Virus record (IMG/VR): IMGVR_UViG_3300027782_000297
Location: 1 to 27,396 of that record
Direction: 5' to 3' (one strand)
From: a virus
Length of the DNA: 27,396 bases
Shown here: one piece after another, positions 6,878 to 23,615 of the stretch
Layout of the letters: every line of letters begins with the position of its first letter
How positions within the stretch are numbered: the stretch's first letter is position 1
Made by a program: the position numbers and the translations under genes
Notes under the pieces: generated by a model
What the model saw: only the letters and a program-made list of their open reading frames with translations
The model's database searches: none
What the model was told of the DNA's origin: nothing

Positions 6878-7234
6878 ATGAAAAAACAAAAATTATTACA
6901 ATTAACAAAAGAGGATCTTGTTGAAATTATTTTAATGATTGAAGAATCTAAACCATATGTGGGAAATTTGATTGATAATCTGATTATTGCATTAGATGGT
7001 TCTGGTGTTGCAACTTACTTTGAAAGTTTTTGGTGTGAAAATTTAAAATTAAACAATAAGGCAAGATTGAAATTAAAAACTTATGTAAATGAGTACGGTT
7101 ATAATAATGTCGTTGAAGGTATTGAGATTGCAATATTACAATATGATGATTTTAATGAAGCGATGAATAAATTAGGTGGTATATTATATAATAGATTTGG
7201 TAAAAATATGAACCAAGTAGTTAGATCAAAATGA
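6878..7234 (+). CDS. hypothetical protein at the head of the putative replication module, 118 aa
   Basis: I chose the internal ATG at 6878 over the far ATG at 6812, because the extra 22 residues are hydrophobic low-complexity sequence and would cover the divergent promoter region. The C-terminal part (LKTYVNEYGYNNVVEGIEIAILQYDDFNEAMNKLGGIL) loosely recalls helical C-terminal regions of DnaD-type replication proteins, but I would not assign it. The last codons (MNQ) are encoded by the first iteron of the array downstream. Confidence 0.55.
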   Translation: MKKQKLLQLTKEDLVEIILMIEESKPYVGNLIDNLIIALDGSGVATYFESFWCENLKLNNKARLKLKTYVNEYGYNNVVEGIEIAILQYDDFNEAMNKLGGILYNRFGKNMNQVVRSK

Positions 7235-7327
7235 ACTATAGTAAGTTCAATATGAACCAACTAGTTAGGTCAATATGAACCAAGTGTCAGTCAATATGAA
7301 CCAACTAGTTAGGTCAATATGAACCAA
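7207..7327 (+). repeat. iteron-like array: six repeats at about 22-bp spacing
   Basis: TATGAACCAA occurs at 7207, 7251, 7274, 7295 and 7318. A degenerate copy (AAATGAACTA) sits near 7228. Start-to-start distances are 21-23 bp, two helical turns. The fuller consensus is TCAATATGAACCAACTAGTT, which includes the palindrome AACTAGTT. Repeats phased in this way on one DNA face are typical of iteron origins bound by a replication initiator, or of multi-site operators. Confidence 0.8.
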
Positions 7328-7403
7328 CTCAATAACCACTATTAATTACTCATTATTAAAACCATTATTAAAAACCATTATTAAACCATTATTAAGTATT
7401 ATT
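7207..7403. other. putative replication origin (iterons plus AT-rich unwinding region)
   Basis: The repeat array is followed at about 7350-7399 by four tandem copies of an AT-rich unit (CATTATTAAAA and variants), and then directly by a winged-helix gene at 7404. Iterons, AT-rich 11-13-mers and an adjacent DNA-binding gene form the classical layout of an iteron origin. The function is inferred. The alternative is an autoregulatory operator. Confidence 0.5.
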
Positions 7404-7778
7404 ATGAAAGAAAAATATATTAACATAGAAGAGAAATTATTGAAGCAAGGTTATACAATAACTCAATCTGCAATCATTTCATATTTGAAAAGATTTCAAC
7501 TAAATGGAAAGTATTGTTTCCAATCTAAAAGACAAATTGCTGATTTTTTTAATATTAGTGAATCAACATTAAAACGAGAACTTTCTAAACTTGAAAAGTT
7601 AGGAGTTATAATCATTTCAAATGAAAAAAAATATATACCAGTTACTTTCTATAATAAAAAAGCGATTGTATATATTGATGGTATAATTGAAACAAATGAA
7701 TGTTATATTGAAGAAAAAGAATTAAATAATAATAATAAAAATGTTAATTGGGGTAAATTCTCAGAAATAATGAATTAA
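7404..7778 (+). CDS. winged-helix DNA-binding protein (HTH_36-like), candidate initiator or regulator
   Basis: Residues 38-72 (CFQSKRQIADFFNISEST, then LKRELSKLEKLGVI) form a textbook winged helix-turn-helix like those at the N-terminus of phage replication initiators and replisome organisers. A short wing and an Asn/Lys/Glu-rich tail follow, with no clear second domain. At 124 aa it is shorter than full initiators. Its gene begins immediately after the iteron-like array, so those repeats are its most likely target. Confidence 0.65.
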   Translation: MKEKYINIEEKLLKQGYTITQSAIISYLKRFQLNGKYCFQSKRQIADFFNISESTLKRELSKLEKLGVIIISNEKKYIPVTFYNKKAIVYIDGIIETNECYIEEKELNNNNKNVNWGKFSEIMN

Positions 7779-7979: not shown

Positions 7980-8534
7980 ATGGGTAAAAGAGAAAATAGT
8001 ATTGAATGGAGAAAGAATAATCCAAAAAGAATTAAAGAATTAAATGACTATCATAACAATAAAAGAATTTTAAATATAAAACTTCAACGATTGAATGAAA
8101 TGAATATTGATAATGTAGAATGGTTTGATATCAAAGGATTGGAAGGTAGATACCTCATCAATAAAGAAGGAGAAATACGTAACGCTAAAACTTATAAAAA
8201 GAAAGCAACTAGGATTGATAGATCAGGATATAAAGTTCTAACGATTGATGCAACAACTCATTTACACCACAGGCTAGTTGCTTTAACTTTTATTTGGAAT
8301 AATGATAAAATTAATAAGAAAGAAATTAATCATATCAATGGAGTAAAATCTGATAATAGAATTGAAAACTTGGAATGGTCTTCAAGATCAGCAAATATGA
8401 AACACGCATTTGCTACTGGATTGTGGAAATCAAATTTGATAGAATGGCATAAAAAGAAAAAGGAAAAGAATGAAGAGTTATCTGAAATTAAAAAAACAAT
8501 TGACAGGCCTAGTACTGGGCATGAGACAATGTAA
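7980..8534 (+). CDS. HNH homing endonuclease with NUMOD4 domain
   Basis: After a basic N-terminus, residues 42-60 (VEWFDIKGLEGRYLINKEG) match a NUMOD4 domain. The HNH_3 core follows: HHRLVALTFIWN, then EINHINGVKSDNRIENLEW, then the SANMKHAF helix. The histidine and asparagine residues of the nuclease core are present. Freestanding enzymes of this class cut a specific site and spread their own gene. Its 3' end overlaps the sigma-like gene downstream, which may be its target. No intron boundaries are obvious. Confidence 0.92.
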   Translation: MGKRENSIEWRKNNPKRIKELNDYHNNKRILNIKLQRLNEMNIDNVEWFDIKGLEGRYLINKEGEIRNAKTYKKKATRIDRSGYKVLTIDATTHLHHRLVALTFIWNNDKINKKEINHINGVKSDNRIENLEWSSRSANMKHAFATGLWKSNLIEWHKKKKEKNEELSEIKKTIDRPSTGHETM

Positions 8535-9141
8535 TTATATTCCATATACAGATCGTATGGACATACTTCAGGATAGTTGGTTAAAGATTATGGAGAAGAT
8601 GGACGAAGGTGTCTTAGAAGACGACTATAACAAAATTAAGGGGTATACGTTCCTAATTGTTAGAAACTTTTGTCTTTCATTCCACAATAAAAATAGATTA
8701 ACCTATACCGATGAGTTAGATACTACACTTCAATGGGAAGAACCTGAGTATGAAGTTGAAATGGAAAAAGAAAGATATAAATCAATATTATTTGAATGTA
8801 TAGATGATCCAAAGTTTAGTGATGTCCAAAGAGAATTGATGAAGATGTTATTGGAAGATAAAACTGAAGATGAAATTAAAACCAAATTAAATTTTAAGGT
8901 TGGTGATATGGGTTCAATAAAATACAATATGATTCAAAAAATGAAAACATCTGTTGGAAAAAGATCAAAGTATGTAATTAAAAATAAAAAAATTGCAATT
9001 ACACACATACCTTGTTTTTCACGAAGCGACATTGAAATGAAATTAGATTACAAATATACTATTCGCCAAATAGATCACGCATTACAATTTAATTTAAATT
9101 TGGGTGATTATTACATTATTAAAATGATAAACCCCAACTAA
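8470..9141 (+). CDS. sigma-70-like regulator overlapping the HNH gene
   Basis: A region-2-like segment (DRMDILQDSWLKIMEKM, then IKGYTFLIVRNFCLSF) is followed by a region-4-like helical segment (FSDVQRELMKMLLEDKTEDE). A further 60-residue C-terminal part ends near the hairpin at 9129-9150. The start is uncertain. ATG 8470 gives 223 aa and a 65-nt overlap with the endonuclease gene, while ATG 8521 gives 206 aa and a 14-nt overlap. The upstream residues (LKLKKQLTGLVLGMRQ) look like part of a first sigma helix, which favours 8470. The family assignment is by pattern. Confidence 0.55.
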   Translation: MKSYLKLKKQLTGLVLGMRQCNYIPYTDRMDILQDSWLKIMEKMDEGVLEDDYNKIKGYTFLIVRNFCLSFHNKNRLTYTDELDTTLQWEEPEYEVEMEKERYKSILFECIDDPKFSDVQRELMKMLLEDKTEDEIKTKLNFKVGDMGSIKYNMIQKMKTSVGKRSKYVIKNKKIAITHIPCFSRSDIEMKLDYKYTIRQIDHALQFNLNLGDYYIIKMINPN

Positions 9142-9150
9142 ATGGGGTTT
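9129..9150. terminator. hairpin between convergent genes
   Basis: AAACCCC (9129-9135) pairs with GGGGTTT (9144-9150) across an 8-nt loop. It overlaps the stop codon of the rightward sigma-like gene and lies 3 nt past the stop of the leftward 217-aa gene. Its position suits a bidirectional terminator, though the U-tracts are short. Confidence 0.5.
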
Positions 9151-9153
9151 AAA

Positions 9154-9800: not shown

Positions 9801-10409
9801 TTAACAATTACCATCCCAACAAGGACCGAATCCACAAGGGAATGTACTACCATAAGGTTCGTACCAATTCATTATATTTCCTCTAACACCACCACGAGGT
9901 ATATACACACCTGTAAAATATGCTTGAGCGGTCTTAGGTAAGTTATCTAAAGCATCAGGATTACTATACCAAATAAACATTCCAGGGTGATCTAATAAAT
10001 ATTTTACCATTCTTCTCTTATAGAATTGTGACATATCTAATATTGATGATCTTAAATACTTAATTTCATCCAAATCTGCTGGTGTTGAAAACTCACTTGA
10101 TTCTTTTGATATCGCTTTATTTGTAGATTTCCAATTTAAGAATGGAAACATAAGATAGAAAGCGTATTGAGCAATCAATGGTTGAACGTAATTTCTCATA
10201 AACGCTTGTTCATCAGATGTCAAAGTATTATTTTGAACTGCAGTATTCAATGCATTCATACCTGTCTCCCCTATTCCTTCTTGAAGGATCGTCTGTTGAG
10301 CCTGTACAATATATGGTAGGATTTTATCGTCGTCTACGTTGTCCTCTATTGGAGTATTTTCACGAAGATATGTGGTTGATATGAAATATACTATTGGAGT
10401 GTAACTCAT
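9801..10409 (-). CDS. head-tail adaptor (connector)-like protein, 202 aa
   Basis: The N-terminus (YFISTTYLRENTPIEDNVDDDKILPYIVQAQ) has the pattern of the all-helical head-completion adaptors of Bacteroidota phages (DUF6712-like), which dock under the portal. A helical core follows, then a Gly/Cys/Pro-rich tail (STFPCGFGPCWDGNC). Its place 15 nt after the portal gene fits this role. Confidence 0.6.
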   Translation of the reverse strand: MSYTPIVYFISTTYLRENTPIEDNVDDDKILPYIVQAQQTILQEGIGETGMNALNTAVQNNTLTSDEQAFMRNYVQPLIAQYAFYLMFPFLNWKSTNKAISKESSEFSTPADLDEIKYLRSSILDMSQFYKRRMVKYLLDHPGMFIWYSNPDALDNLPKTAQAYFTGVYIPRGGVRGNIMNWYEPYGSTFPCGFGPCWDGNC

Positions 10410-22037: not shown

Positions 22038-23615
22038 TTAAGTGAAGTTTTGTATATAAGAAGCGAAGTATTTAGATCCATCATAAATGAATGTATACAC
22101 ATCAAATTTATTGGCAGTTGCCGTCATAGTAGGTGTTGTCCCTCCTGCCCAAGTAACTGTACCTGGCCAAGTAATAGTGTTAGAACCACCTGATGATTGT
22201 TTTATTATCAATATATAAGTTGCTCCTGAATTTGGATTACTAAATGTAAAAGTTGTTGATGCTCCTAATGTATATTCTTGAACATTACCATTATTAAAAT
22301 TAACAGTTGTTGCACTTGTTGTTGTTCCTGTTGTTGGTAATGTTACCCAAGTTTGTCCTGATGTAATTTGTATATTACCAGTATAGGGTGATGCAAACGA
22401 TGTTCCTGATGTTCCATTAGTTCCTGAAGCTCCATTAGATCCACTTGTCCCATTTGTTCCTGATGCTCCATTAGTTCCTGATGTCCCGTTAGTTCCATTT
22501 GCTCCACCTGTAGTTTTAATTACTTTATTATTACTATCTAATCCAAGAAATGATATTGAAGTTCCTGTGGTTGCTGATACAATAGTTAAATCAGGAACAT
22601 AAACCATATCATTAGTTGTTCCTGTTATTCCACTACCACCAATTATTGCAGATCTTAATGTACCATTTAATGCATTATTAATTCCACCTATTATGGCAAG
22701 ATAAGCAGATGGAACTCCAATAATTTTATTAGATAAACCTGTTATAAAATTATAACTACCTCCTGAAGTTATATTATTTCCACCAAATACCGAAGTATAA
22801 CTACTATTAGTTAAAGTATTACCTCCACCAAAAATATAATTATAAAAACCACTTGTTGATGTATTACTATTACCAAAAATACCACTACCTGCACTATTAG
22901 ATGTATTTGAAGAACCTATAACAATATTACCTAAAATTCCTGGTGATCCAGATGTGCCTAAATTATTATCATTTCCAACTAATAATGTATACTCATTTGT
23001 ATTAGTATTTCCAGTGCCGGCAATTCCTGTTATACTTCCTAATGTTGATCCTGATGTCCATAATATATCTCCACTTATACCCGAAGTTCCATTACTTCCT
23101 GAAGTCCCTGAAGAACCATTAGTTCCATTTGTACCTGATGTTCCATTAATTCCTGAAGTACCATTAGTTCCCGATGCTCCATTAGTTCCTGAAGTTCCTG
23201 CAACTCCACTAGTTCCTGAACTACCTGATGATCCACTTCCACCTGTTGAAGTAATCGTATTACCTGAAGCATCTAAAGCTAGAAATGTTGAACTTGAACC
23301 TGAACTTAATCCTGAATATACAATGGTATTACCATTAGAAATTACAATATCAAATCCATTACTGAAATTACTTGTATATAATACTTCACCTAATGTTGGT
23401 GTTGTTGCAGTTAAACCTGATAATGATATTGGATAGATACCATTGTCCGTTCTAACCCATAATGCATCATCTGTAGTATTACAATACATCTCACCGATAA
23501 ATAAATCAGTAGGAATCATTTCATTCAATGTAGTACCTGTAGGTATAGTTGGAACTTGTCCTGTTAGACCTGTTCTCTTTAATAATAATCGTGAGTATTC
23601 TATCTTATCAGACAT
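22038..23615 (-). CDS. collagen-like / beta-roll tail fibre, 525 aa
   Basis: Residues 34-68 (IPTDLFIGEMYCNTTDDALWV) resemble the N-terminal linker seen on many phage fibres. Collagen blocks lie at 125-183 and 370-406. Between them (205-345) is a series of N-x-I-x-G-G-x-N-type repeats (IFGGGNTLTN, VFGGNNITSG, ITGLSNKIIG, IIGGINNALN), like the left-handed beta-rolls of trimeric adhesins. The C-terminal 110 residues are a beta-rich head (TGNIQITSGQTWVTL to KYFASYIQNFT). A trimeric host-binding fibre is the best inference. Confidence 0.8.
   Translation of the reverse strand: MSDKIEYSRLLLKRTGLTGQVPTIPTGTTLNEMIPTDLFIGEMYCNTTDDALWVRTDNGIYPISLSGLTATTPTLGEVLYTSNFSNGFDIVISNGNTIVYSGLSSGSSSTFLALDASGNTITSTGGSGSSGSSGTSGVAGTSGTNGASGTNGTSGINGTSGTNGTNGSSGTSGSNGTSGISGDILWTSGSTLGSITGIAGTGNTNTNEYTLLVGNDNNLGTSGSPGILGNIVIGSSNTSNSAGSGIFGNSNTSTSGFYNYIFGGGNTLTNSSYTSVFGGNNITSGGSYNFITGLSNKIIGVPSAYLAIIGGINNALNGTLRSAIIGGSGITGTTNDMVYVPDLTIVSATTGTSISFLGLDSNNKVIKTTGGANGTNGTSGTNGASGTNGTSGSNGASGTNGTSGTSFASPYTGNIQITSGQTWVTLPTTGTTTSATTVNFNNGNVQEYTLGASTTFTFSNPNSGATYILIIKQSSGGSNTITWPGTVTWAGGTTPTMTATANKFDVYTFIYDGSKYFASYIQNFT
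22398..22508 (-). repeat. collagen-coding repeat block, distal part of the 525-aa fibre
   Basis: Encodes residues 370-406, Gly-X-Y triplets (GTN, GTS, GAS, GSN) of the same type as the blocks in the 821-aa gene. Confidence 0.8.
23067..23243 (-). repeat. collagen-coding repeat block, proximal part of the 525-aa fibre
   Basis: Encodes residues 125-183, Gly-X-Y triplets (GSS, GTS, GTN, GIN). DNA units are close to those at 441-767 and 1116-1604. Confidence 0.8.

What the first reader, a model, noticed from the sequence alone, without database searches (positions are those of the whole stretch)
7207..7403. Six helically phased iterons plus AT-rich repeats: a candidate phage origin
Repeats of TATGAACCAA recur every 21-23 bp, with a longer consensus containing AACTAGTT, followed by four copies of CATTATTAAAA-type units, then a winged-helix gene. 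This is the architecture of iteron-controlled replication, more typical of plasmids. The first repeat lies within the coding end of the previous gene.
Basis: partly seen in the sequence, partly recalled or inferred. Interest (0 to 1): 0.7.

Follow-up and report, generated by a model that had tools for sequence, protein, structure and literature searches.

The report
Iteron-type replication origin of small phage
The repeats are very probably the DNA replication start site of a small phage of Bacteroidetes bacteria, built on the same plan as the origins of phages lambda and SPP1, and related phages have swapped in other initiator genes that each carry their own version of such an array.

Summary
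Window 7207-7397 has five exact TATGAACCAA copies plus one degenerate copy, with starts 21-23 bp apart. Most units are imperfect palindromes of 18-20 bp. Four CATTATTAAA units follow, then a 124-aa winged-helix gene. No such array arose in 200 shuffles. [quoted passage not shown] Evidence: the protein matches phage replication-initiation families. A relative with only 49% identical protein keeps both iterons and AT repeats. Near-identical phages carry four or six units, as lambda (4) and Stx phages (6) do. In relatives the same genomic slot holds unrelated genes (a second winged-helix type; DUF6291), each with its own iterons plus AT-rich repeats inside the gene. In all six relative loci tested, this slot is the strongest short-period repeat region. 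The genome closes at about 29.7 kb with no other replication gene recognised. 'More typical of plasmids' is not right: it is a standard phage layout. Binding and origin activity are not shown. New member of a known kind; mildly novel are the very short initiator without a recognised loader domain, and DUF6291 as a probable initiator.

The parts
6878..7234 (+). first gene of the early operon (118 aa, unknown function); its 3' end contains iteron 1 and its stop codon starts iteron 2
   Evidence: homologue in L018 41% identical; no family match
7209..7228 (+). iteron 1, TGAACCAAGTAGTTAGATCA (14/20 dyad-symmetric)
7232..7249 (+). iteron 2 (degenerate in the direct repeat, but perfect 6-bp inverted arms TGAACT...AGTTCA)
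7253..7272 (+). iteron 3, TGAACCAACTAGTTAGGTCA (16/20 dyad-symmetric)
7276..7293 (+). iteron 4, TGAACCAAGTGTCAGTCA (weaker dyad, 8/18)
7297..7316 (+). iteron 5, identical to iteron 3
7320..7337 (+). iteron 6, half-site only (TGAACCAACTCAATAACC), at the junction with the AT-rich region; strongly conserved in L018
7338..7403 (.). AT-rich direct repeats, 4x CATTATTAAA, candidate DNA unwinding element; among the least stable stretches of the window
   Evidence: duplex stability within the lowest 0.15% of 100-bp windows
7404..7778 (+). candidate initiator: 124-aa winged-helix protein (HTH_36; N-terminal domain of phage replication-initiation families)
   Evidence: Pfam HTH_36 9.5e-6; phrog_270 2.3e-9, phrog_428 2.6e-8, phrog_678 O-like 6.8e-7

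Best explanation
This is the replication origin and initiator gene of a small tailed phage of a Bacteroidetes host. The 124-aa winged-helix protein, most likely as a dimer, binds the 18-20 bp palindromic units and stacks them into a nucleoprotein complex. This opens the adjacent AT-rich CATTATTAAA repeats. The host helicase, primase and polymerase are then recruited for theta replication. Shown by sequence: the array, its dyad symmetry, the AT-rich repeats, the initiator-family match, conservation in relatives, and the replacement of the whole cassette by other genes with their own arrays. Inferred: binding, opening and host recruitment.
For: (1) The array is far beyond chance. (2) Five of the six units carry inverted half-sites, one of them weak. 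In L018 the unit TGAACCAACGGTTGGCTCA keeps 16/19 dyad symmetry although its centre differs from that of the window. (3) The protein matches phage replication-initiation families by HMM, and L018 and L007 homologues match the same ones. (4) L018 (protein 49% identical) keeps five units at 21-22 bp pitch plus the AT repeats. A 36-nt stretch at the last iteron matches at 32/36, against a median of 24/36 for the cassette. (5) L007, a prophage-like locus of Cochleicola gelatinilyticus (39% identical domain), has four different palindromic iterons (GCTCATTTTGAGC type, pitch 24-31) plus three 15-bp AT-rich repeats upstream of its 397-aa initiator. (6) In L021, L022 and L024 the slot between hyp89 and the HNH gene holds unrelated genes, DUF6291 or a second winged-helix type matching DnaD-like/replication-initiation PHROGs. 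Each has its own iterons and AT-rich repeats inside the gene; L054 likewise. (7) In all six relatives this slot is the strongest short-period repeat of the locus; in the window it has the highest z-score, 49.6. (8) No other replication gene was recognised in the genome, about 29.66 kb once closed by L001/L006.
Against: No binding, origin-activity or read-depth data. GC skew simply follows gene direction, so it does not help. No helicase-loader gene or domain was found, so the recruitment step is unknown. No DnaA box near the array. The AlphaFold model is poor (mean pLDDT 50). The AT-rich repeats are not the single least stable stretch of the window.
Confidence: 0.85

Rival explanations
1. The repeats are only an operator array: the winged-helix protein is a repressor that controls its own operon.
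For: A winged-helix protein next to palindromic sites is also the layout of an autoregulator; some weaker PHROG hits are transcription regulators. Initiators often autoregulate, so this can be true in addition.
Against: The sites lie between gene 1 and gene 2 of the operon, not at the AT-rich leader upstream of gene 1 that all relatives share (read). In L021, L022, L024 and L054 the corresponding arrays lie deep inside the coding sequence. The AT-rich direct repeats beside the array are not needed for an operator. The best family hits are replication initiators.
Confidence: 0.09
2. Partition (centromere-like) or packaging (pac/cos) site.
For: Iterated sites also occur in parC/parS-type centromeres, and terminase genes lie within 3 kb.
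Against: No ParA/ParM-type gene was recognised among the proteins searched. The array follows the initiator gene when cassettes are exchanged, while TerS/TerL stay.
Confidence: 0.03
3. Neutral tandem duplication without function (slippage).
For: Copy number differs by exactly one 44-bp pair of units between near-identical phages (L002/L004/L005 against L003).
Against: Units are kept in L018, where flanking coding DNA is about 60% identical, with dyad symmetry preserved. Equivalent arrays of unrelated sequence occur at the same slot.
Confidence: 0.03

Closest known systems
Phage lambda ori and O protein (and Stx phage origins)
   Same: Initiator gene, an array of O-binding iterons followed by an AT-rich tract; O is a dimer; 4 iterons in lambda and 6 in Stx phages (PMC7466680), like 4 versus 6 units here
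   Different: Lambda's array lies inside gene O, here just upstream of the gene; lambda O is longer and works with helicase loader P, and no P-like gene was recognised here; Pfam Phage_rep_O hit only 19.5 bits, below its cut-off
SPP1 oriL/oriR and gp38 replisome organizer
   Same: Direct repeats plus AT-rich unwinding element; oriL lies within the initiator gene (PMC6316719), as in relatives L021/L022/L024
   Different: SPP1 encodes a helicase loader (gp39) and helicase (gp40); none recognised here; no second array of this sequence in the window
Iteron plasmids (Rep with two winged helices, Rep_3 type)
   Same: Iterons with about 22 bp pitch next to an AT-rich region
   Different: One short winged-helix domain only; no Rep_3 match among the listed Pfam hits; sites are palindromic, the lambda-like arrangement

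Membership tests
Iteron-type phage replication origin (lambda/SPP1 layout) | Array of several initiator-site repeats, beyond chance | tested here: met
Iteron-type phage replication origin (lambda/SPP1 layout) | AT-rich, easily melted region directly beside the array | tested here: met
Iteron-type phage replication origin (lambda/SPP1 layout) | Initiator gene next to or around the array | tested here: met
   phrog_270/428/678 hits
Iteron-type phage replication origin (lambda/SPP1 layout) | Array conserved together with the initiator gene in relatives | tested here: met
Iteron-type phage replication origin (lambda/SPP1 layout) | Specific binding of the initiator and start of replication at the site | not testable with these tools
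   needs EMSA/footprint and replication assay
Lambda O family proper (Pfam Phage_rep_O) | Match above the curated cut-off | tested here: not met
   19.5 bits against 28.7; so it is not filed as a lambda O member
Lambda O / gp38 type initiators | C-terminal part that engages a helicase loader encoded beside it | tested here: not met
   the protein ends about 30-50 residues after the wing; no loader-like protein found among those searched

The most novel reading that the evidence does not exclude
A 124-aa, one-domain winged-helix initiator with no phage-encoded helicase loader fires the origin of a 29.7-kb phage by recruiting host replication proteins directly through a short C-terminal tail. 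Related phages exchange whole initiator-plus-origin cassettes, including one built on the uncharacterised family DUF6291, which would thereby be a replication-initiator family.
Probability: 0.45. Interest if true: 0.5.

Novelty: new member of a known kind. Interest (0 to 1): 0.36.

Why it matters
It locates the likely replication start in a group of uncultured Bacteroidetes phages whose initiator gene has no match in the annotated phage collection. It shows initiator and origin moving as one exchangeable cassette in a single genomic slot. It also gives a sequence-based reason to assign DUF6291 to replication initiation.

Tried and rejected
GC skew as an origin signal: it only follows gene strand. 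DnaA-box and IHF-site scans: none near the array. The sigma-70 promoter scan was no better than shuffles. Structure prediction from three sequences was too poor to search with. PDB sequence search: weak regulator-like winged-helix hits only. A search of annotated phages with the initiator gave nothing. No annotated relative close enough to compare the region was found: FpV9 shares TerL at 52% but was not analysed for an origin; the nearest portal matches are 25% or less.

Full report
OBSERVATION. Five exact TATGAACCAA copies lie at 7207-7327 on the + strand and nowhere else in the record. A sixth, degenerate copy sits at about 7230. TGAAC starts alternate 23/21/23/21/23 bp. In 200 dinucleotide-preserving shuffles no 10-mer occurred more than twice within 150 bp. 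Four CATTATTAAA units (7351-7397) follow, then the ATG at 7404. Iteron 1 lies in the end of ORF 6878-7234, and that ORF's stop codon begins iteron 2.

ANATOMY. The unit is better described as a palindromic site than as a 10-bp direct repeat. TGAACC-N8-AGGTCA is 16/20 dyad-symmetric at 7253-7272 and 7297-7316. TGAACT-N6-AGTTCA at 7232-7249 has perfect 6-bp arms although it is the 'degenerate' direct repeat. The last unit (7320-7337) is a half-site next to the AT-rich region. The AT-rich region is within about the lowest 0.15% of duplex stability at 70- and 100-bp scale, but it is not the single least stable stretch. Such sites suit a dimeric winged-helix protein; dimer binding is inferred.

PROTEIN. 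The 124-aa product is HTH_36 in Pfam. It matches the N-terminal domain of phage replication-initiation PHROGs: phrog_270 2.3e-9, phrog_428 2.6e-8 and phrog_678 (O-like) 6.8e-7. It has almost nothing after the wing. The Phage_rep_O match stays below its cut-off. The structure model was poor.

GENOME. Contigs from other metagenomes (L001, L006) run from the window's last base through 2263 bp into its first base, so the map closes at about 29.66 kb. The gap holds no recognisable replication gene, and no other replication gene was recognised among the window proteins searched. The large subunit of terminase is 52% identical to Flavobacterium psychrophilum phages, so the host is probably a member of Bacteroidetes.

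RELATIVES THAT KEEP THE GENE. Near-identical phages have six units (window, L001, L003) or four (L002, L004, L005); L003 and L002 differ by one 44-bp pair of units. L018 (protein 49% identical; CDS about 60% at DNA level) keeps five alternating units and the AT repeats, again starting at the upstream stop codon. A 36-nt stretch at the last half-site matches 32/36, against a median of 24/36 over the cassette; the other stretches that high lie in the HNH gene. L007, which lies in the Cochleicola gelatinilyticus genome, has a 397-aa homologue and a different iteron set with three AT-rich 15-mers upstream of it.

RELATIVES THAT LOST THE GENE. With portal about 91-96% identical, L021, L022 and L024 keep HNH, sigma-like, hyp89 and hyp173 genes on either side, but the slot holds other genes. 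L021 has a DUF6291 protein. L022 and L024 have another winged-helix protein matching DnaD-like and replication-initiation PHROGs. The window's repeats are gone, and each gene carries its own array inside its coding sequence. In L021 these are TCAACCTGTGGTTGTTTT units at 22 bp pitch beside TCATTWACATTA repeats. In L022/L024 they are 16-bp ACCCTGA-type units beside three 15-bp AT-rich repeats. L054 shows the second type in a different phage. A short-period repeat score computed over all 200-bp tiles put this slot first in all six relatives, and gave it the highest z-score in the window.

MECHANISM. The common factor is an initiator gene linked to its own iterons and AT-rich repeats, the layout of lambda ori (PMC7466680) and SPP1 oriL (PMC6316719). 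The likely sequence of events is binding, opening of the AT repeats and recruitment of the host replisome; all three are inferred. How the helicase is loaded is open, since no loader was recognised. Autoregulation of the operon may occur in addition, but an operator alone does not explain in-gene arrays with AT-rich repeats.

VERDICT. Very probably a real phage replication origin, well supported by comparison but not demonstrated. It is a new member of a known kind, with modest novelty in the minimal initiator and the cassette exchange.

Noticed in passing
L021:10424-10846 (-): A DUF6291 protein occupies the initiator slot and has 22-bp-pitch palindromic iterons and AT-rich repeats inside its gene, suggesting that DUF6291 is a replication-initiator family; no paper in the library mentions DUF6291.
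   Followed up: partly
L018:5284-5748 (-), L022:8170-8727 (-), L024:3108-3665 (-): Two different winged-helix initiators share the same C-terminal tail (FDEDDI.SIM..N...E.INYLNK); either a recombination junction or a conserved contact with a host replication protein.
   Followed up: no
7980-8534 and 8470-9141 (+): An HNH endonuclease gene (HNH_3, NUMOD4-like) overlaps the start of a sigma-factor-like gene; the pair is kept in the portal-related loci that span this region.
   Followed up: partly
9128-9151: A 9-bp stem with T-runs at the convergent junction of the early operon and the head genes, a likely bidirectional terminator.
   Followed up: no
69-2534 and 22038-23615 (-): Two predicted tail or fibre proteins with long GTSG/NGTSG collagen-like tracts; the first tract aligns only in pieces between relatives.
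   Followed up: no
window ends; L001:335-2597: The window is not complete: contigs L001 and L006 join its end to its start through 2263 bp, giving a circular or permuted map of about 29.66 kb.
   Followed up: yes
L007:10281-10309 and 10353-10381: Two further iteron-like copies lie inside the 397-aa initiator gene of L007, besides the four upstream.
   Followed up: no
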